Below, piece after piece: positions 3,201 to 12,978 of a DNA stretch of 64,000 bases (position 1 is the first letter of the stretch; each line of letters starts with the position of its first letter). Below the pieces are notes generated by a model. The model worked only from the letters and a program-made list of their open reading frames with translations, ran no database searches and had not been told where the DNA came from. The translations under genes and the position numbers were made by a program. The DNA comes from Solimonas variicoloris DSM 15731 (lineage in GTDB: Bacteria > Pseudomonadota > Gammaproteobacteria > Nevskiales > Nevskiaceae), in NCBI RefSeq assembly GCF_000382285.1, contig NZ_KB907925.1:1-64000 (forward strand), given 5' to 3'.

Positions 3201-3204
3201 GGGC

Positions 3205-3231
3205 AAAAAAATGCCCGGACGAGCCGGGCAT
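3205..3231 (-). terminator. Rho-independent terminator of the Roadblock/GTPase operon
   Basis: A perfect 8-bp stem (3211-3218 with 3224-3231, loop ACGAG) carries six A residues (3205-3210) on its left, giving a U-tract on the minus strand just after the Roadblock gene ending at 3255. It closes the minus-strand operon and separates it from the convergent DUF2238 gene. Confidence 0.8.
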
Positions 3232-3254
3232 TCGCGCCTGACGCAGTCAGTCCC

Positions 3255-3662
3255 TTACGGGCAGTAGGCCTTCATCTGCGGCAGCGCCGCACGCAGGGCC
3301 GCCCAGCCCATGCCGAGGTTGGCGCGCTTGGTGGTGATCAGCACGGCGAGCGCGTTCGGCTTGTCCGGCACCACCGACATGAAGTGGAAGGTGGCCTCGG
3401 TGGTCATCTGCACTTCCTTGATGGAGTTGGTGATCTCGCGGCCGCGCTGCGCGGACAGCAGCTTCTCGACAGTGCCCACGGTCTTGCCGCGGAACATGTC
3501 GACAGCGGCGGCGGCGACGGCGTCGAGGTAGCTCTGCGTGAAGTACGGCACGTTGTGGGCGACCGACAGCAGCAGGCCGGAGCTGAGGTCGACAACGGCG
3601 ATGGCGAGCGATTCGTTGACGTCGCGCAGCACCGTGTTGCAGATCTCGTTGAGGTTCTTCAT
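3255..3662 (-). CDS. Roadblock/LC7-domain protein A
   Basis: A 135-residue protein starting MKNLNEICNTVLRDVNESLA. The whole length fits a Roadblock/LC7 fold: a helix, then beta strands around LAIAVVDLSSGLLLSVAH, a long amphipathic helix, and a C-terminal strand-helix. Known Roadblock proteins (for example MglB) dimerise and act as GTPase-activating or scaffolding partners of Ras-like GTPases; that this one does so is inferred from its neighbours. It is the last gene of a five-gene minus-strand operon, 63 bases after a second Roadblock gene and two genes after the GTPase. The separate spacing and its own ribosome site (GGAGAAG) could allow a different expression level. Confidence 0.8.
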   Translation of the reverse strand: MKNLNEICNTVLRDVNESLAIAVVDLSSGLLLSVAHNVPYFTQSYLDAVAAAAVDMFRGKTVGTVEKLLSAQRGREITNSIKEVQMTTEATFHFMSVVPDKPNALAVLITTKRANLGMGWAALRAALPQMKAYCP

Positions 3663-3725
3663 GACTTCTCCTTGGTGAAACCTGGGATGGGGAAACAGGG
3701 ACGGCTTGAACGAATTTCAGGCAAC

Positions 3726-4145
3726 TCAGGCAGCGCGCGCGTACTGGCCGAGCTCCTCGCCGATGGCGACGCAGCACTTCCGGCACTGCAGCAGCAGGTG
3801 GCCGAACGCGCTTTGCGCGTCGACCAGCACCAGCAGCACGAGGTGGTGCACGCCGCCATCGGGGATCGACATCACGACGACCTTGCCGCTGTCGCCGTCG
3901 ACGATGATGTCGCGGCAGCCGTCGAGCCCGGCCTCGCGGGCGGTCGCGGCGCAGAGGCCGTACATGGCGCCGGCCATCGCCGCGAGCTTGGCGGTCGGCG
4001 CCGTGTCGTCGATCGCGGCGGCGAGCGCGAAGCCGTCGTCGCTGGCGAGCACGGCGCCGCGCAGGCCGGGCACGTCGTTGCGCATCTGGCTGAGGTGCGG
4101 CAGCGCGTGGCGCAATGCCCACTGGCGCAGGGATTCGGCGTTCAT
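3726..4145 (-). CDS. Roadblock/LC7-domain protein B
   Basis: A 139-residue protein starting MNAESLRQWALRHALPHLSQ. The pattern GLRGAVLASDDGFALAAAID followed by a helix-rich segment and the strand KVVVMSIPDGGVHHLVLLVLV is typical of Roadblock/MglB-like proteins. A CRKC pair near the C-terminus could bind metal or form a disulfide. Its ATG overlaps the GTPase stop by four bases (ATGA), so the two are translationally coupled and are the most likely physical partners. It differs in sequence from the downstream Roadblock protein, so the pair may form a heterodimer or two homodimers. Confidence 0.8.
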   Translation of the reverse strand: MNAESLRQWALRHALPHLSQMRNDVPGLRGAVLASDDGFALAAAIDDTAPTAKLAAMAGAMYGLCAATAREAGLDGCRDIIVDGDSGKVVVMSIPDGGVHHLVLLVLVDAQSAFGHLLLQCRKCCVAIGEELGQYARAA

Positions 4146-4675
4146 GTGCAGGCCTCCAGCTGGCTGAGCAGGACGTGGACCATCATCAGCACGTCGTCGC
4201 GGCGGCGGACGTCTACCGACAGCACCGGCAGCAGCAGCGCCTCGCCGGCGAGCAGATCGGCGTAGGCGTCGACCGTCGGTTGCGGGTGCGACTCGGTGCG
4301 GCCGACGCCGATCACCAGGCGCGCGCCTTCGGCGAAGTCGCGGAAATGGCGCAGGTACTCGCGCACATCGTCGAGCGGCGCCGGCCGCGAGTTGTCGACC
4401 AGCAGGATCACGCCGAGCGCGCCGTTGGCGAGCACGCGCCACATGAAGTCGAAGCGCAGCTGGCCGGGCGTGCCGATCAGCTGGATGCGGCTGCCGTCGT
4501 CGAGCGTGAACTCGCCGTAGTCGAGCGCGACCGTGGTGGTGTCCTTGTCGAACAGCGCGCGGTCGTGATTGACGGCCTCGGTCGTCACCGGCGGAATCTC
4601 ACTGAGCGCGGCGATCGACGTGGTCTTGCCGGCGCCCATCGAGCCGGCGAAGACGATCTTGCGGGCGGTCGTCAT
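4142..4675 (-). CDS. MglA/COG2229-like small GTPase
   Basis: A 177-residue single-domain GTPase. The P-loop G11SMGAGKT18 is canonical. The switch regions show DKDTTTVALDYGEF (candidate G2 Thr) and LIGTPGQLRFDFMW, the prokaryotic form in which the Asp of DxxG is replaced by Gly, as in the COG2229/MglA-like group. The usual NKxD guanine-specificity motif is not recognisable; GVGRTE occupies the position, also seen in this group. It acts in the cytosol as a nucleotide switch, presumably controlled by the adjacent Roadblock proteins. It starts two bases after the upstream gene and overlaps Roadblock B by four bases. Family assignment is firm; output is unknown. Confidence 0.88.
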   Translation of the reverse strand: MTTARKIVFAGSMGAGKTTSIAALSEIPPVTTEAVNHDRALFDKDTTTVALDYGEFTLDDGSRIQLIGTPGQLRFDFMWRVLANGALGVILLVDNSRPAPLDDVREYLRHFRDFAEGARLVIGVGRTESHPQPTVDAYADLLAGEALLLPVLSVDVRRRDDVLMMVHVLLSQLEACT

Positions 4676-4677
4676 CG

Positions 4678-5571
4678 TCACAGTCCGAGCCGGCGGCGGA
4701 TGCGGCCGAGCAGGCCGCGCACGCCGTCGTCGAGCGTGGCCGCCGGCCGCGGCAGCGGCGCGGCGAGCGCACCCTCGCTGCCCGCATAGCCGGCCATCAG
4801 GCAGCCGCCGAGAAAAGCCTCGACCTCCGGCACCGGCACCGCGGCGGCGGCGGCGGCGGCGCCCGGCGACGTCGCCTGGCGCGCGAACAGCGCGGCGAGC
4901 CGCACGAACTCCGGCCGGTGCGGCAGCGCGCCGAAGTCGGGCCAGCGACGCAGGCGGTAGACGCCGGGCTGCACGCGCGCCTCGCCGACGCCGGCCATCC
5001 ACATCAGCCAGGTCAGCGCGCCTTCGACGGCGGTAACGGGTGCCGGCGCGTCGTCGCGGTGCCAGTCGGCGGCGGTCGCGTGCTGCGCGAGCAGCGGCGC
5101 GCTGCTGCGGTAGCGGCCGGCGACGAAGTCGGCCTCGACCCGCACGCGGCCATCGCTGAGCCGCAGCACGGTCTCGTCGTCGCGACGCGAGCGCAGGCAT
5201 TCGGCGAGCGTGCCGCGGCCGTCGCCGCGCGTCGCCGGAGCAGCCGGCGCGGCGACACTCGCAGCGGCGGTCGCGGCAGCCGGCGCCGCGGCGGACTTCG
5301 CCGCGCCCAGGCACGCCGAAGCCTGATCGAGCACGGCGATCACCGCCGCCACGCGCAGCGGCGCATTGAGACGCAGCTCGCCGTCGCCGCCGTAGCGGAT
5401 CGTCAGCGCCTTGCCGGCGTCGAGCCCGGGCACGGCGATGCAGGCGTCGACCGGCCCGCTGTCGCGGAACGCCCACGGCTCGCGCGTCTTGCCGGACAGC
5501 AGGCTGAGGTAGGACTTGATCAGCAGGGTTTCCTTGTCGCCGAGCCCGGCGGTGGTGAGCGTGCGTTGCAT
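4678..5571 (-). CDS. Unrecognised 297-residue protein of the GTPase operon
   Basis: Starts MQRTLTTAGLGDKETLLIKS. The first 100 or so residues look like a compact alpha/beta domain. Then comes an Ala/Pro-rich linker (about residues 90-125) and a C-terminal half rich in Arg, Trp and Ala, containing a run of Ala residues encoded by a GCG/GCC triplet repeat near 4846-4862. No catalytic motif, signal peptide or transmembrane helix is visible. I do not recognise a family. Being wedged between the phosphoesterase (11-base gap) and the GTPase (2-base gap), it is likely a cytosolic adaptor or effector of the switch. Inference only. Confidence 0.65.
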   Translation of the reverse strand: MQRTLTTAGLGDKETLLIKSYLSLLSGKTREPWAFRDSGPVDACIAVPGLDAGKALTIRYGGDGELRLNAPLRVAAVIAVLDQASACLGAAKSAAAPAAATAAASVAAPAAPATRGDGRGTLAECLRSRRDDETVLRLSDGRVRVEADFVAGRYRSSAPLLAQHATAADWHRDDAPAPVTAVEGALTWLMWMAGVGEARVQPGVYRLRRWPDFGALPHRPEFVRLAALFARQATSPGAAAAAAAVPVPEVEAFLGGCLMAGYAGSEGALAAPLPRPAATLDDGVRGLLGRIRRRLGL

Positions 5572-5582
5572 GGGATCGTCCT

Positions 5583-7106
5583 TCAGGTACCGGTGCGCAG
5601 CCGGTCCATCAGCGCGCCGGGAAAGTCCTGCGCCGCCATGTCGCGCAGCGTCAGCTCGACGTCGTACGGCGCTCGGAAAAAATGGATCTGCGTGGTCGCC
5701 GGATTGAACACCGCCCACTGCGCGTCGAGGCTGCCGCCGCGCGGCTGGCCGACCGAGCCGGGGCAGATCAGCGCTTCGCGATAATCGAGCAGCGACTGCT
5801 CGGCCTCGTCGCTGAAGCCGCTGCGCTGCGGCGTCGCGTAGAAGATGCCGGCGATGTGGCTGTGCCCGTGAAAGGCCCAGCGCAGGCCGTGCTCGGCGAG
5901 ATAGCGCAGGTTGTCCTCGTAGGTCATGCGGTAGACGTAGGCGCGGAAGAACGCCGGGTCCATCGGCGCGCCGTGCTGCGCTACCCAGCCCTCGCGCTCG
6001 AGCCGCGTCGGCAGCTGTCCCAGCCAGCCGCGCGCCTCATCGCCGAGCCGCTGCCGCGTCCACTCGACGACGCGCGCCGCGGTCGCGGTGAACCCTTCGG
6101 CCGTGCTGGTGCCGGCGACGGCGTCGTCGTGATTGCCGCGCACCACCTCGAAACCGCTGTCGCGCACGAGCTCGATGCACTCGGCCGGATGCGGGCCGTA
6201 GCCGACGATGTCGCCGAGCACGATGCCGCGATCGACGCCGAGCCGGCGCAGTCCGGCGAGCGCCGTTTCCAGCGCCGGACGGTTGGCGTGAATGTCGGCG
6301 AGCAGCGCGAACGGCCGCTGCTCGTGGAGCGTCGCGCGCGTGCGCGAATGCGGCTGCGCGCCGAGCAGCCCTTCAATGAAACCGTCGAGACGGCGCGACT
6401 GGTCGTCGCCGTTGTAGTAGAGGCCGCGGATGCCGTCGGCGACACGCCGGCATGCGCCGGCGTCGCCGAACTCGCCGACGATCGCCTGACGCACGGTCTG
6501 ACCGAGCATCTGCGCGAACTTCGGCGTCAGCGTGCGCAGCTTGCGGATCAGCACGCCGACCGACTGGCTGAAGTGCGCGAAGTCGTCCCAGGGATAGACG
6601 TCGTCGTCGAGGTAATGCAGCTGGCCGGCGTCGTCGACCGCGAAGTTGGACAGGCCCTCGTCGAGCCGCACGCGAAAGCGCGCGGCGATGCGCAGGTACA
6701 TCTGCAGCATGGCGCGCACGTGGCGGAAGAACACCATCGCGTCTTCCTCGGCCTGCGGCAGATGCAGCGCGCGCAGCCGCGGCGTGACGTTGCCGAGCCA
6801 GACGCCAGCCTGCGGACCTTGATCCTCGGTCACGATCAGCCAGGTGCGCGCCGGGTGATAGACGCCGTACAGGCGCTCGCGCAGCAGGGTTTCCTCGGTC
6901 TGTTCGCGCAGGCCCTGCGCGGGTCCGGCCAGACGCAGCTTGAGCACGTGCTGCGGCGAGGCCTGGATGCGCGTCAGCGGCCGGCCGGTGAACTCGCCGT
7001 CGTGGCCGAGCGCCTGCGCCGGCAAGGCGAAGAGTTCGAGCGCGAGATCGGGCGAACACGCCAGCGCGGGGTCGATGGCCCCGATGATGTCGATGCGTGT
7101 CGCCAA
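5583..7106 (-). CDS. Metallophosphoesterase with kinase-like N-terminal domain
   Basis: A 507-residue soluble protein and first gene of the operon. The C-terminal half is a calcineurin-like phosphoesterase with all metal motifs: D271xH273, GD299IVGYG, GNHD (324-327), a His near 378 and GHSH (414-417). It resembles the YfcE/serine-threonine-phosphatase-like group. The N-terminal 260 residues contain an HVLKLRL lysine (K56), then LDEGLSNFAVDD (148-159) and YLDDD (165-169). This is the order and spacing of a kinase-fold ATP-binding Lys, catalytic-loop Asn and metal-binding Asp, so the protein may fuse a kinase-like and a phosphatase domain. The C-terminal call is firm; the N-terminal one is inference. 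Confidence 0.85.
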   Translation of the reverse strand: MATRIDIIGAIDPALACSPDLALELFALPAQALGHDGEFTGRPLTRIQASPQHVLKLRLAGPAQGLREQTEETLLRERLYGVYHPARTWLIVTEDQGPQAGVWLGNVTPRLRALHLPQAEEDAMVFFRHVRAMLQMYLRIAARFRVRLDEGLSNFAVDDAGQLHYLDDDVYPWDDFAHFSQSVGVLIRKLRTLTPKFAQMLGQTVRQAIVGEFGDAGACRRVADGIRGLYYNGDDQSRRLDGFIEGLLGAQPHSRTRATLHEQRPFALLADIHANRPALETALAGLRRLGVDRGIVLGDIVGYGPHPAECIELVRDSGFEVVRGNHDDAVAGTSTAEGFTATAARVVEWTRQRLGDEARGWLGQLPTRLEREGWVAQHGAPMDPAFFRAYVYRMTYEDNLRYLAEHGLRWAFHGHSHIAGIFYATPQRSGFSDEAEQSLLDYREALICPGSVGQPRGGSLDAQWAVFNPATTQIHFFRAPYDVELTLRDMAAQDFPGALMDRLRTGT

Positions 7107-8813: not shown

Positions 8814-11800
8814 TCAGCGCCGCGCGCGACGACGGCCGAGCGCCGCGGCCAGCAGGCCGAGCAGCACCGACAGCGGCATCGCACCGCCGTTGTTGCCGTC
8901 GCTCGTGCCGCCGGTCGAGTCACCGCCGGTGGTGCCACCGGTGGTGGTGCCGGTGCCGCCGGTGGTAGCGCCCGTCGTGGCGCCCGTCGTCGTACCGCCG
9001 GTCGTCGCGCCACCGGTCGTGGTACCGCCGGTGGTGGTGCCGCCCGTCGTATCCCCGGTCGTGCTACCGCCGGTCGTACCGCCGGTCGTGGTCCCACCCG
9101 TGGTGCTGCCACCTGTGGTCGTACCGCCGGTCGTATCACCGGTCGTGCTGCCGCCCGTGGTCGTACCGCCGGTGGTGCCGCCGGGCGGCGTGACCGTGCA
9201 CTGCGCGTCGTCGGCGCTGACGGCATTGAACACGGCGCCGCTGTTGCCGGTGAGAACGAGATTGTCGATCGCCCAGCCGTAGCCGCCGTTGAGCGCATCG
9301 CTGGCGACATGGAAGCGCAGCCGCGCGGTCTTGCCGGCGAGCCGTTCGGCGAAGTCGAGCACCGAGGTCTGCAGGCCACGGTTGCGGTTGACGAAGCCGC
9401 GGTGGCCGGTGACCTGCGCCCGGCCGCTGTAGCCGTTCTTCGTGAAGCGTGCGCCGAAGTCGGTGACGTCGGTCCAGGTCGCGCCGTCGTCGACGCTGAC
9501 CTCGACGAAGCCGCCGTCGTAGCCGAGGCCGAGCACCGGCAGCGGCAGCAGCGACTCGAAGTCGTAATGGTGATCGAAGCTCACCGAGAAACTGCCGCCG
9601 GCCGGCACCGAGAACGCCGGCGTGACGAGATACAGGTCGGTCGCCGTTTCCGGGTCCGGCGCGTACCAGACGTGGCCGCTGCCGAGCTCGTCGTTGTCGT
9701 CGACGATCTCCCACTGCACGGTCGTGCCCCGCGAGACGCGCGTCCAGCCGGATGCCGCGAGCGCCGGATACTCGAAGTCGTCGCGGTTGGCGGTCCTGGC
9801 GATGTCGTAGTTGGCGAGCAGTTCGAGGCTCGTCGCCGGCGGATACTCGACCGCCGGGTCGGCCGAAGCCGGCGCGTCGAGCGCCAGCGTCAGCGCGATC
9901 TTCAGCGGCGAGGCCACACCCTGCGCGAGCGCGACGTCGAGCGTCGCGTACGCGCTCTGGCCGATCGCCGGCGCGACGAAGCTGAGCTGGCCGGCGCCGG
10001 GCGACAGGCCGGCGGCGTCGCTGCCGAGCGTCGCGGTGACGGTCTCGCCCGGCGTGTACGCGCCGTTGTTGAACAGCGCGAAGCGCAGGCGCGCCGACTC
10101 GCCGGCATCGAGGATGCCGTCGCCGTCGCAGCCGTCGAAGCCGTCGGCGGTGGCGCCGATGCCGGCGACCAGCGTCGGCGCCGGCGCGGCGAAGGCCACG
10201 TCGCTCTCGACGACGCCGGCGTTGTCGGTACTGCTGCGCGACGGCGCGACCGCATGCAGGCCGAGGCCGCGCTTGGCGAACGCGCGCGCCGCCAGCGCGT
10301 AGTCGGCCGGATCGGTCGCCAGCGCCGCGGCGAGCACGCCGTCGCGCGCTTCGGTGAAGGTCGGCGACGACGGCGTCATCTTCAGGCCGGCGATCACGTA
10401 GTCCTTCATCCGCGCCTGCGCGGTCGCGAAATCGTGATGGTTGAGCAGCGCCGCGTAGACCTCCCACAGCATGTTGGCCCAGACCTCGCCGACGTTGTGG
10501 ACCTCGGCGTTGTCGGCGCCGTCGGCGCCGAACGCGACCGGCGCACCCTCGATCGCCACGCCGGTTTCGATGTGCTTGAAGCGCAGCGGATTGACCGTCA
10601 TCTGCGTCGAGTACGGCGCGCGACGGATGCCGAAGTAGTAGCTCGGGATCACGTAGAAGCCGGTCGGGTACGCGCCCTGATAGCGCTCGTTGCCGGCCAC
10701 TTCGCGGTCCTCCGGCCGCACCGCGAGCAGCAGCGAGGCGATGTCGCTCCAGCCCTCGCCCATGCCGCCGCCCTGCGTGTTCGACAGGCCGGAGCCGTCG
10801 CTGACGAGGCGGTTGCTGACGTGGTGGAAGAACTCGTGCGCGATCACCAGCTCGTCGAGCGTGCCGTCGTAGTCGATCGAGGCTTCGCGCCGCAGATGCA
10901 TGCTGACGGTCTGGCCGGCGGCGAGCCGGTCCTTGATCGTCTGGCCGTCGTCCTTGCGGATCATCACCGCCGGCAGCAGGTAGAGCGCGTCGGTGGACAG
11001 GCCGATCGGGATCGGCAGATCGGCGTTGCCCATCGCGATCGGATCGCCGTCGCCGTTGTTGACGACGATCATCGCCTTGGCGCCGGACAGCGTCGCGAAC
11101 TGCTCCTTGGTCGTGAACGAGCAGTTGCCGCGATCGATCAGTGCGATCTTGCCGAGCAGCGAGAGCTGCGGCGGCGCCGGCAGCGTGGTGCCGGTGATCG
11201 GCAGGCTCAGCGTGCCGGCGCAGCCGTCGGTCGGATCGCCGACGATATCGGCGGCGAGCACGACGTCGCCGCTCAGGTCGAAGGTGTTGGGACCGAAGCT
11301 CGCGCCGGTGAACTTCAGCGGCGCCGACGGCTCGGGCGCGGTGATCGCGACCTCGCCGCGCAGCGGACCGTCGAACAGGTACATCTGCATCGTCGGCGAA
11401 CTGCCGTCGGCCGGCGTCGCCATGTTGGCGTTGTTGCGCCCCGACGAGTCCTGGCCCTGCGCCGAGATCGCGTCGCCGTCGACGCCGCCGCGGCCGTAGT
11501 TGTCGTTCTGCGCGTTGCCGGACGCCTCGTCGAAGCCGTGGTCGTACCACCAGTCGTGCAGCCAGTTGTTCATGTAGAACAGGTTGACGATGGCGGCGTT
11601 CCTGGCGTCCGCGGTCGACGGATCGTCGTCGGCGTGGATCGGATAGTCGAAGCTGCGCTCGCCGCTCAGCGCCACGCGCAGATCGCCCGAACCCGGGATG
11701 TAACCGTCGCCGGTGATGGTGCCGATCGGGTCCGGCAGGTTCAGCGGCAGGCCCAGCTGCGGACCGGTATCGAGGAAGGCGTCGGCGTTGTTGCCGGTGG

Positions 11801-12836
11801 TGGTCGTGGCGTCGTTGGCGAGCCACGGATCGCCGGTCGAGATCGGGCCGCTGACCAGGGTCACGGCGTTGGCCGTCGCGCTGACACGCGGCAGGACCTC
11901 GTCGATGGCATGGCCCGGGAACGGCAGATAGCCATTGCCGAGCGGCGCGTCGTACGGCTGATGGATGCCGGCGGCGTCGGCGAACACGCGATAGGTGAAC
12001 GGCTGGGCCGCCTCGTAGGCGACCAGATCCTTGGCGAACAGCGTGCTGCCGTCCTCGCCGAACACGAAGGACCAGGCGACCGTGCCGGGCGCACCGGCGC
12101 GGCGGCCGAAGACCTCGACGTAGTACGCCGGCACGAGGCGGTCGGCGAGCGCGTAGTAGACCGCCTTGCTGCGCGGCGCACGGCTCAGCGCGAAACCGTC
12201 CGGCACCACGTCGAGTGCGTAGGACTGATAGCCGCCGCGCGCCTGCGTCGCGCGCACGGCATTGCCGGCGACGCTGACGCCGAGCCGGCGCAGCGCGGCG
12301 CTGACCGCCGGCGCGCCGCCGCTGCCGGCGAAGGCGCCGGCCTGCTTCACGGCAGCGCTGGCGGCGAAGTAGCCGGACGCGGCGACCGGCCGGCCGCTGG
12401 CATCGAGCATGACGCTGACGCGGCGGTTGAAGACCTCGATGCCGCCGACGCGCTGCGCGAAGCGCGCGACCACCGGGCCGTGGCCGCGGTCCTGCAGATC
12501 GAGCAGCGTCGCGCTCTCGACGCTCGACGCCGGCAGCGCCAGGCGGCCGGCGGCCTTGCGCAGATACTGGCGGGCAAAGGTTTCGAGCTGCGCCTTGCGC
12601 GCGGCCTTGCCGATCTTGCCGACCACCGGCGCGCGCGCATCGCTCGCGGCCCAGACGAAGCTCGCGCCGCCGAGCGCGGACGCGTCGGCCGGCACCGCAC
12701 CGCGCGGCAGCGCGCCGGCGATCGCCGTCTTCTGCTGCTGCGCCCAGAAGGCATCGTAGTTGGCCGGCTGGCCGCCGGACGCACCCGCCGCCGCGGCCGC
12801 GCCGAGCAGCGCGCCGGTCAGAATCACCCGCTTCAT
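8814..12836 (-). CDS. Secreted M36 (fungalysin-like) metalloprotease with GlyGly-CTERM anchor
   Basis: A 1340-residue multidomain exoprotein. A signal peptide (residues 1-20) and an FTP-type propeptide come first. The peptidase domain has H667EFFHH with the downstream GEGWSD (E694), the zinc site of family M36; a protease-associated (PA) segment (IDRGNCSFTTKEQF) lies about residues 520-640. C-terminal beta-rich domains (around 1000-1210) follow, then a long Thr/Gly stalk (about 1218-1305) and a terminal GlyGly-CTERM signal: Gly-Gly, one hydrophobic helix and a GRRRARR tail. Such tails are cut by rhombosortase in type II-secreted surface proteins. No rhombosortase or type II genes are in the window. 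The start at 12836 is chosen for the signal peptide. Confidence 0.9.
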   Translation of the reverse strand: MKRVILTGALLGAAAAAGASGGQPANYDAFWAQQQKTAIAGALPRGAVPADASALGGASFVWAASDARAPVVGKIGKAARKAQLETFARQYLRKAAGRLALPASSVESATLLDLQDRGHGPVVARFAQRVGGIEVFNRRVSVMLDASGRPVAASGYFAASAAVKQAGAFAGSGGAPAVSAALRRLGVSVAGNAVRATQARGGYQSYALDVVPDGFALSRAPRSKAVYYALADRLVPAYYVEVFGRRAGAPGTVAWSFVFGEDGSTLFAKDLVAYEAAQPFTYRVFADAAGIHQPYDAPLGNGYLPFPGHAIDEVLPRVSATANAVTLVSGPISTGDPWLANDATTTTGNNADAFLDTGPQLGLPLNLPDPIGTITGDGYIPGSGDLRVALSGERSFDYPIHADDDPSTADARNAAIVNLFYMNNWLHDWWYDHGFDEASGNAQNDNYGRGGVDGDAISAQGQDSSGRNNANMATPADGSSPTMQMYLFDGPLRGEVAITAPEPSAPLKFTGASFGPNTFDLSGDVVLAADIVGDPTDGCAGTLSLPITGTTLPAPPQLSLLGKIALIDRGNCSFTTKEQFATLSGAKAMIVVNNGDGDPIAMGNADLPIPIGLSTDALYLLPAVMIRKDDGQTIKDRLAAGQTVSMHLRREASIDYDGTLDELVIAHEFFHHVSNRLVSDGSGLSNTQGGGMGEGWSDIASLLLAVRPEDREVAGNERYQGAYPTGFYVIPSYYFGIRRAPYSTQMTVNPLRFKHIETGVAIEGAPVAFGADGADNAEVHNVGEVWANMLWEVYAALLNHHDFATAQARMKDYVIAGLKMTPSSPTFTEARDGVLAAALATDPADYALAARAFAKRGLGLHAVAPSRSSTDNAGVVESDVAFAAPAPTLVAGIGATADGFDGCDGDGILDAGESARLRFALFNNGAYTPGETVTATLGSDAAGLSPGAGQLSFVAPAIGQSAYATLDVALAQGVASPLKIALTLALDAPASADPAVEYPPATSLELLANYDIARTANRDDFEYPALAASGWTRVSRGTTVQWEIVDDNDELGSGHVWYAPDPETATDLYLVTPAFSVPAGGSFSVSFDHHYDFESLLPLPVLGLGYDGGFVEVSVDDGATWTDVTDFGARFTKNGYSGRAQVTGHRGFVNRNRGLQTSVLDFAERLAGKTARLRFHVASDALNGGYGWAIDNLVLTGNSGAVFNAVSADDAQCTVTPPGGTTGGTTTGGSTTGDTTGGTTTGGSTTGGTTTGGTTGGSTTGDTTGGTTTGGTTTGGATTGGTTTGATTGATTGGTGTTTGGTTGGDSTGGTSDGNNGGAMPLSVLLGLLAAALGRRRARR
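8909..9185 (-). repeat. In-frame Thr/Gly-coding microsatellite-like repeat of the M36 protease
   Basis: About 275 bp of short imperfect tandem repeats built from units reading ACC-ACC-GGC-GGC and variants on the coding strand, giving runs of TTGG, TTTGG and STTGD. Unit boundaries are in multiples of three, so copy changes keep the frame. It codes for the flexible stalk between the enzyme and its membrane anchor. Confidence 0.85.
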
Positions 12837-12978
12837 GAATCGCCCCCGTGACGGTTCTGACCGTCGAATCCTGAATTTCCCTGGACGGATCAGAGCAACA
12901 ACGGTGCCGGGCACGCGCAGGAAAATGCCGCGTCGGCGGCGCCTGAGATTCCCTCAGTATCGTTTTACTATCGGACTT

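What the first reader, a model, noticed from the sequence alone, without database searches (positions are those of the whole stretch)
3255..7106. Five-gene GTPase/Roadblock/phosphoesterase operon: candidate signalling module
Seen: two different Roadblock proteins, an MglA/COG2229-like GTPase, an unknown 297-residue protein and a metallophosphoesterase, in one minus-strand run with 2- to 63-base gaps, one four-base overlap and a single terminator. Known: Roadblock proteins control small GTPases such as MglA in polarity. Inference: a complete switch (GTPase, regulators, adaptor, phosphoesterase output) unlike the classical MglAB pair. The GTPase lacks recognisable NKxD and uses GTPGQ for DxxG.
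Basis: partly seen in the sequence, partly recalled or inferred. Interest (0 to 1): 0.8.

Follow-up and report, generated by a model that had tools for sequence, protein, structure and literature searches.

The report
Bacterial GTPase switch with added enzyme
This is a known but little-studied kind of bacterial molecular switch (a small GTPase with helper proteins), here joined by an extra enzyme with a phosphate-removing half and a possible kinase half; among the bacteria compared, that enzyme occurs only together with one particular version of a helper protein.

Summary
The five minus-strand genes are real and as described. Genes 2-5 (unknown protein, GTPase, two Roadblock-type proteins) match a system published in 2014 as 'Group 3 MglA' of beta/gamma-Proteobacteria (PMC4316618).

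What I did not find described is gene 1: a calcineurin-like phosphoesterase with a conserved ~250-residue N-terminal domain that has the residues and spacings of a kinase-like active site; profile comparison does not confirm a kinase. Full-length relatives occur in 14 of 369 sampled class genomes, own included. All 14 also have the Group 3-type GTPase (64 of 369) and a distinct 'PYFTQ' subtype of gene 5 (17 of 369). In 10 of the 13 other genomes gene 1 lies directly beside gene 5. None of 17 loci with the other gene-5 subtype shows it. Phylogeny leaves few independent events.

Best reading: a Group 3 MglA switch carrying a phospho-regulatory accessory. A surface-motility (type IV pilus) output is plausible, not shown.

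The parts
5583..7106 (-). Gene 1 (P1), 507 aa: N-terminal ~250-aa conserved domain with kinase-like residue pattern (K56, E77, D149-x4-N154, D167) followed by calcineurin-like metallophosphoesterase (residues ~265-500). TTG start.
   Evidence: Pfam; 15-member alignment; AlphaFold2 mean pLDDT 89.4, pTM 0.60; residues and spacing; Foldseek (phosphoesterase half only)
4678..5571 (-). Gene 2 (P2), 297 aa: conserved unknown protein of Group 3 MglA systems; alpha/beta N-terminal part, helical C-terminal part, tail IRRRLGL
   Evidence: alignment; model mean pLDDT 71.6; no significant Foldseek match; described for the group in PMC4316618
4142..4675 (-). Gene 3 (P3), 177 aa: MglA-type small GTPase (GSMGAGKT, TTTV, GTPGQ, no NKxD, DVR at G5)
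3726..4145 (-). Gene 4 (P4), 139 aa: Roadblock/LC7 protein with the conserved DG pair, MglB type
3255..3662 (-). Gene 5 (P5), 135 aa: divergent Roadblock-like protein of the 'PYFTQ' (Y) subtype
3204..3233 (-). Likely intrinsic terminator: 10-bp hairpin followed by a run of T
   Evidence: one search's consensus scan did not list it

Best explanation
The locus is a Group 3 MglA G-protein switch. Gene 3 is the GTPase; gene 4 is its MglB-type Roadblock regulator (GAP or co-GAP); gene 2 is the system's receiver-like/winged-helix adaptor that would pass the state on. Gene 5 is a second Roadblock-like protein of a distinct subtype (Y), and gene 1 is an accessory enzyme that works with it: a metallophosphoesterase fused to a probable kinase-like domain, adding and removing phosphate (or hydrolysing a nucleotide signal) so that the switch responds to a second input. 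The likeliest output is control of type IV pili and surface behaviour. Shown here: the genes, their co-conservation, and the co-occurrence and adjacency of gene 1 with Y-type gene 5. Inferred: kinase-like nature, the interaction, the direction of signalling and the output. Likelihood by step: Group 3 membership about 0.9; gene 1 functionally tied to gene 5/the switch about 0.8; kinase-like N-domain about 0.55; pilus output about 0.4.
For: Group 3 traits and gene content. Genes 2-3-4-5 together in 12 of 12 stretches from the order and, with gene 5 upstream of gene 2, in 45 of 54 Acinetobacter loci. Full-length gene 1 in 14 of 369 class genomes, all 14 with a Group 3-type GTPase (64 of 369; Fisher p 6e-12, 4e-11 without the own genome) and all 14 with Y-type gene 5 (17 of 369); in the order, 3 of 85 genomes have full-length gene 1 and all three are Y-type. 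Gene 1 directly next to gene 5 in 10 of 13 distant genomes (9 with GTPase and gene 4 also in view, 1 cut by the contig end). None of 17 N-type loci shows gene 1; the three loci with gene 1 and no gene 5 in view (L140, L141, L147) come from genomes that have Y-type gene 5 elsewhere. One clade of Y-type systems is rejected on the GTPase tree (p-AU 4e-5), so gene 5 type seems to have been exchanged against the GTPase background. Kinase-like pattern: K, E, D, N and D invariant in 15 of 15; D to N spacing 5 in 15 of 15, N to D 13 (14 rows) or 12 (1 row), K to D 83-97; Pkinase members fetched from relatives give 5 (15 of 15), 13-14 (11 of 15 measured) and 89-99 (15 of 15); predicted strands and helices fall in the matching order. 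Pilus link: 64 of 64 Group 3-type genomes have PilT over the cut-off against 245 of 305 others (p 3e-6); an mglB change in a Group 3 system altered colony spreading in Snodgrassella (PMC11112851).
Against: The kinase assignment has no statistical support: no relevant Pfam or PDB profile hit for the N-domain, and hhalign against Kdo, APH and Pkinase alignments gives probabilities of 0.8-1.1%, no better than decoys (0.1-1.9%). A catalytic-loop pattern could be measured in 13 of 20 APH and 1 of 11 Kdo members only. The Foldseek list for gene 1 showed only phosphatases/phosphoesterases among the 50 rows printed of 1576, so the N-domain fold is untested. Phylogeny cuts the gene 1/gene 5 association to a few contrasts: of 4 in gene 1, gene 5 type goes the same way in 2 and does not differ in 2; of 2 in gene 5 type, gene 1 follows in 1.5 on average; never the opposite way, but the sign test is not significant. 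Identity matrices of gene 1 and gene 5 across 11 loci correlate only weakly (0.27, p 0.09), less than gene 1 with the GTPase (0.40, p 0.013). Three genomes have Y-type gene 5 without gene 1 (G260, G321, G443); two of these match by profile without the literal motif. The gene 5 and gene 4 profiles do not align significantly. The 64 GTPase genomes were found with one profile and not each classified into a published group.
Confidence: 0.5

Rival explanations
1. Gene 1 is a nucleotide hydrolase (Ap4A- or cyclic-nucleotide-type phosphodiesterase) whose N-domain is a non-catalytic docking or sensing domain; it tunes a nucleotide signal read by the switch and does not phosphorylate proteins.
For: Nearest solved relatives of the C-domain include SapH, an asymmetric Ap4A hydrolase/phosphodiesterase (3qfm/3qfn), besides 3rqz and 1nnw. 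The N-domain has no statistically supported kinase relationship.
Against: All five kinase-type catalytic positions are invariant in 15 of 15 with similar spacings, which a docking domain would not need.
Confidence: 0.3
2. Gene 1 is only a genomic neighbour: old linkage of genes 1 and 5 with no joint function, carried along by transfer of the cluster.
For: Few independent contrasts; weak correlation of gene 1 and gene 5 identities; gene 1 is convergent with gene 5 in 8 of 10 adjacent loci, so not co-transcribed there.
Against: 14 of 14 gene 1 genomes keep Y-type gene 5, including three where the genes are not adjacent in the stretch or contig seen (G365, G259, G115), and including the Solimonas order in which gene 1 sits at the other end of the cluster.
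Confidence: 0.15
3. The output is transcription rather than pili: the adaptor (gene 2) binds DNA through a winged helix under control of the GTPase.
For: Proposed by Wuichet and Sogaard-Andersen from Phyre2 predictions (PMC4316618). The gene 2 model has helices 220-231, 236-242, 247-260 and a strand 263-266, which would suit a winged helix.
Against: Model confidence is moderate and Foldseek found no match with E under 0.001; no DNA-binding test was seen in what I read.
Confidence: 0.3
4. A novel switch unrelated to known MglA systems.
For: Divergent motifs; gene 5 has no Pfam hit.
Against: Gene content and motifs match published Group 3.
Confidence: 0.03

Closest known systems
Group 3 MglA systems of beta/gamma-Proteobacteria (Wuichet and Sogaard-Andersen 2014, PMC4316618)
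   Same: Unknown two-part protein + MglA-type GTPase + one or two MglB/Roadblock proteins; GTPGQ in G3; G4 lacking the NKxD lysine; D-x-R at G5
   Different: Gene 1 (kinase-like domain plus phosphoesterase) and the Y subtype of the second Roadblock protein are not mentioned in the sections and passages seen
Snodgrassella/Neisseria group 3 mgl locus (PMC11112851)
   Same: Group 3 GTPase with several mglB genes; an mglB change altered colony spreading
   Different: No phosphoesterase gene is mentioned in the parts read (abstract, sections 18 and 19)
Classical MglA/MglB (Group 1, Myxococcus, Thermus)
   Same: Small GTPase with Roadblock regulator
   Different: Group 1 has TVPGQ and an intrinsic Arg next to the G2 Thr; here GTPGQ and Thr
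Actinobacterial conservon (CvnA-D)
   Same: GTPase, Roadblock protein and unknown protein in one cluster; deviant G4
   Different: No histidine kinase among the five proteins here
SapH / 3rqz / 1nnw-type metallophosphoesterases
   Same: C-terminal half of gene 1 (3rqz 30-31% identity, SapH 23-24%)
   Different: Those chains are 239-258 residues long in the structures compared and have no counterpart of the N-terminal domain

Membership tests
Group 3 MglA system | GTPGQ in G3 of the GTPase (shared by Groups 2-5) | tested here: met
   (window residues 68-72); some relatives read GMPGQ or GLPGQ
Group 3 MglA system | G4 motif departing from [NT]KxD, lysine lost | tested here: met
   window VGRTE; Acinetobacter rows THID or SHLD/THLD; published trait
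Group 3 MglA system | DAR at G5 | tested here: met
   D155-x-R157 invariant in 13 of 13; window reads DVR, the five Acinetobacter rows DAR
Group 3 MglA system | Neighbouring unknown protein with conserved N- and C-terminal parts | tested here: met
Group 3 MglA system | That protein is receiver-like then winged-helix | tested here: inconclusive
   topology compatible, mean pLDDT 71.6; no significant structural match
Group 3 MglA system | One or two coupled MglB/Roadblock proteins | tested here: met
   gene 4 Robl_LC7 1.6e-10; gene 5 only through relatives, so the second one is weaker
Group 3 MglA system | GTPase branches with published Group 3 sequences | not tested
   no sequence labelled Group 3 in print was put in the trees
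Group 1 MglA/MglB | TVPGQ and intrinsic arginine finger at G2 | tested here: not met
   GTPGQ, TTTV
Conservon (Group 2) | Histidine kinase CvnA in the cluster | tested here: not met
   none of the five proteins
Calcineurin-like phosphoesterase (gene 1 C-domain) | Metal-binding residues DxH, GD, GNH, H, GHxH | tested here: met
   D271, H273, D299, N325, H326, H378, H413, H415, H417 invariant in 15 of 15; motif list recalled
Protein-kinase-like fold (gene 1 N-domain) | Conserved K, E, D-x4-N, D with kinase spacing | tested here: met
   which positions are catalytic in kinases is recalled
Protein-kinase-like fold (gene 1 N-domain) | Statistically significant profile similarity to kinase families | tested here: not met
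Protein-kinase-like fold (gene 1 N-domain) | Structural match of the N-domain to solved kinases | tested here: inconclusive
   one search printed 50 of 1576 matches, all phosphatases/phosphoesterases by title; the second aligner was not available

The most novel reading that the evidence does not exclude
Gene 1 is a bifunctional kinase/phosphatase that, paired with the Y-type Roadblock protein, reversibly phosphorylates a component of the GTPase switch, giving a bacterial Ras-like switch set by built-in phosphorylation: a regulatory layout that I found in no paper searched.
Probability: 0.25. Interest if true: 0.8.

Novelty: new variant of a known kind. Interest (0 to 1): 0.5.

Why it matters
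Group 3-type MglA systems are widespread (64 of 369 sampled class genomes by one profile; Acinetobacter too), yet no biochemistry for them turned up in what I read. A dedicated accessory enzyme tied to one Roadblock subtype gives a concrete handle: it predicts which proteins touch, and that phosphate chemistry feeds into a bacterial Ras-like switch. It would also suggest that the second Roadblock protein is a specificity adaptor and not a duplicate GAP.

Tried and rejected
Acinetobacter 'fil' operon idea: a recalled lead; searches gave nothing relevant, and the Acinetobacter cluster lies beside rplM/rpsI/SspA-like/SspB-like genes in L021 (names by my reading of the translations). Conservon and classical MglAB: rejected on content and motifs. 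Gene 5 as a plain copy of gene 4: profiles do not align. Kinase homology by profile: failed. Fold search of the gene 2 model: no significant match. Paper searches for a phosphoesterase with MglA/MglB: none relevant.

Rows dropped before counts: four GTPase genomes with best E over 1e-20 (G122, G217, G417, G438) left out of the 64; six genomes with matches near 1e-15 only left out of the 17. In the tree, 14 row names were listed to be left out: three duplicates of a locus, a contig-edge locus (L053), further GTPases of genomes already present (L143_1, L209_1), and L152, L153, L156, L165, L179 with their extra rows. These last five lie in genomes that have gene 1, show no gene 5 in view, and would have counted as mismatches if scored by genome. 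Rows of 140 residues or fewer were not used; L209 was scored as having gene 1 from its genome, and L206 and L208 as Y-type from the profile match, not the literal motif. Some 'no gene 5' labels come from loci with only about 1.5 kb of flank. The Y-type group given to the AU test was chosen after the quick tree had been seen, and long branches are present.
Full report
What is there. The minus strand carries five tightly packed genes at 7106-3255: gene 1 metallophosphoesterase (507 aa), gene 2 unknown (297 aa), gene 3 small GTPase (177 aa), gene 4 Roadblock/LC7 (139 aa), gene 5 a divergent Roadblock-like protein (135 aa). Pfam supports genes 1, 3 and 4 and gives nothing significant for gene 2 and nothing for gene 5. 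The TTG start of gene 1 lines up with the starts chosen for its relatives. A hairpin with a T-run follows gene 5, though the simple consensus scan did not list it. The genome has one match to the Roadblock family, gene 4, and one match to gene 5. The nearest named GTPase is that of Solimonas flava (99% identity).

Core module. GTPase relatives were found in 13 of 85 genomes of the order and at 60 loci of a public genome collection: one Solimonas, 54 Acinetobacter, one MAG labelled Klebsiella and four cyanobacteria. Genes 2, 3, 4 and 5 stand together in that order in all 12 stretches taken from the other order genomes. In 45 of the 54 Acinetobacter loci gene 5 is found upstream of gene 2 and genes 2-3-4 follow; 9 show no gene 5, some of them at contig ends, and two (L064, L071) have interrupted or fragmented genes. 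The cyanobacterial loci show only genes 3 and 4. So the core is genes 2-5 in these Proteobacteria, and order is flexible.

It is a published kind. Wuichet and Sogaard-Andersen 2014 (PMC4316618; I read sections 13 and 18 in full and passages of others) define Group 3 MglA of beta/gamma-Proteobacteria: a conserved unknown protein (receiver-like and winged-helix by Phyre2), a GTPase and one or two MglB proteins, with GTPGQ shared by Groups 2-5, a deviant G4 in Groups 2 and 3, and a DAR motif at G5. The window meets the motif and gene-content features; the fold of gene 2 stayed inconclusive and no tree with published Group 3 sequences was made.

What is new here: gene 1. In a sample of 369 class genomes, full-length relatives (query start at residue 24 or before, end at 500 or after) occur in 14, own included, at 37-44% identity to the window protein outside the own genome; the other 54 genomes with a match have only stretches that begin at residue 213 or later, mostly the phosphoesterase half. 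In the order, 3 of 85 genomes have it full-length (G000, G040, G046), all of this genus, and the other ten GTPase-bearing genomes do not. All 14 class genomes carry a Group 3-type GTPase, which 64 of 369 have when four weak matches are dropped (Fisher p 6e-12, or 4e-11 without the own genome). Around the 13 other gene 1 copies, 9 loci show GTPase, gene 4 and gene 5 beside it, one shows gene 5 and then the contig ends, and 3 show no module gene in the stretch. In the 10, gene 1 abuts gene 5: convergent in 8, downstream of it on the same strand in 2 (L139, L149). In Solimonas it sits at the opposite end, upstream of gene 2.

Gene 1 goes with one gene 5 subtype. Gene 5 comes in a PYFTQ (Y) form and a GNTE (N) form. 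In one search, every locus with both gene 1 and a visible gene 5 has the Y form, and 0 of 17 N-form loci has gene 1 in view. Across the 369 genomes the Y form is in 17 (matches at E below 1e-50): the 14 with gene 1, plus G260, G321 and G443 without it; G260 and G321 match the profile but not the literal motif. Where gene 1 is not next to the module (G365, G259, G115) the Y form is still in the genome. Across 11 loci Y-type gene 5 is the best conserved of the four proteins compared, mean identity 65% against 49% GTPase, 39% gene 1 and 32% gene 4. GTPase and gene 4 identities correlate best (0.62, p 0.0005), as expected of a switch and its regulator. On the quick GTPase tree the Solimonas pair (window, L077) falls among N-type systems (SH-aLRT 87, not starred), and holding all Y-type systems as one clade is rejected (p-AU 4e-5; group chosen after the first tree was seen). 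So gene 5 type seems to have been exchanged against the GTPase background, with gene 1 going along. Limits: of 4 independent contrasts in gene 1, gene 5 type goes along in 2 and does not differ in 2; never the opposite, but too few for significance, and gene 1 and gene 5 identities correlate weakly (0.27, p 0.09).

What gene 1 may do. The C-domain has the full metal-binding set, invariant in 15 of 15, and resembles 3rqz, 1nnw and the Ap4A hydrolase SapH. The N-domain (1-250) has no relevant Pfam or PDB profile match. Its invariant residues K56 (in a strand), E77 (in the next helix), D149-x4-N154 (in a loop after a long helix) and D167 (after two short strands) match kinase catalytic positions in order and spacing, measured against Pkinase members from relatives, and for the D-N-D part against 13 of 20 APH members. 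The kinase meaning of these positions is recalled. Profile-profile comparison with Kdo, APH and Pkinase alignments is not significant, while those three families find each other at 97-98% probability. I therefore call it kinase-like by pattern only. The AlphaFold2 model is confident per residue (mean pLDDT 89.4) but less so in overall arrangement (pTM 0.60).

Output. All 64 Group 3-type genomes have PilT over the family cut-off against 245 of 305 others (p 3e-6), confounded by small genomes and kinship. In Snodgrassella (PMC11112851; abstract and sections 18 and 19 read) a change in an orphan mglB of a Group 3 system altered colony spreading on soft agar; the authors connect it to type IV pili. 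This makes a pilus output plausible, not shown.

Verdict. Observation confirmed; core already known; gene 1 with Y-type gene 5 is a new variant worth testing. I found no paper on it in the searches, which cover open-licence PMC papers only.

Noticed in passing
L078:13719-14636, L080:1756-2673, L082:14642-15565 (L079 likewise): In four genomes of one related genus a second, solitary gene 2 relative lies about 4.4-5.3 kb beyond the module on the opposite strand; in the aligned copy (L078) the conserved C-terminal IRxxLGL tail is missing.
   Followed up: no
window 4681-4701 (C-terminus of gene 2) and relatives: A short basic tail (IRRRLGL or similar) ends most of the gene 2 proteins aligned and could be a docking motif.
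   Followed up: no
window 8814-12914, minus strand: Long ORF that looks like a secreted zinc metalloprotease (HEFFHH) with a Thr-Gly repeat tail and an end (GGAMPLSVLLGLLAAALGRRRARR) resembling a GlyGly-CTERM sorting signal; names from memory, no search run.
   Followed up: no
L064:5974-8287 and L071:4977-6948: In Acinetobacter ursingii the GTPase frame stops early with a gap of about 1.5 kb before gene 4, as if interrupted; in A. variabilis gene 2 is in two pieces and the GTPase frame is short.
   Followed up: no
L017: A contig labelled Klebsiella pneumoniae (MAG) whose GTPase is 59% identical to the window's and falls on the tree with the Solimonas relatives; the label may be wrong.
   Followed up: no
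L209:2656-3676 (G365) and G259:C157:4207-5058: Two Y-type gene 5 copies in tandem; in L209 they lie about 13 kb from the GTPase genes and gene 1 is on another contig.
   Followed up: partly
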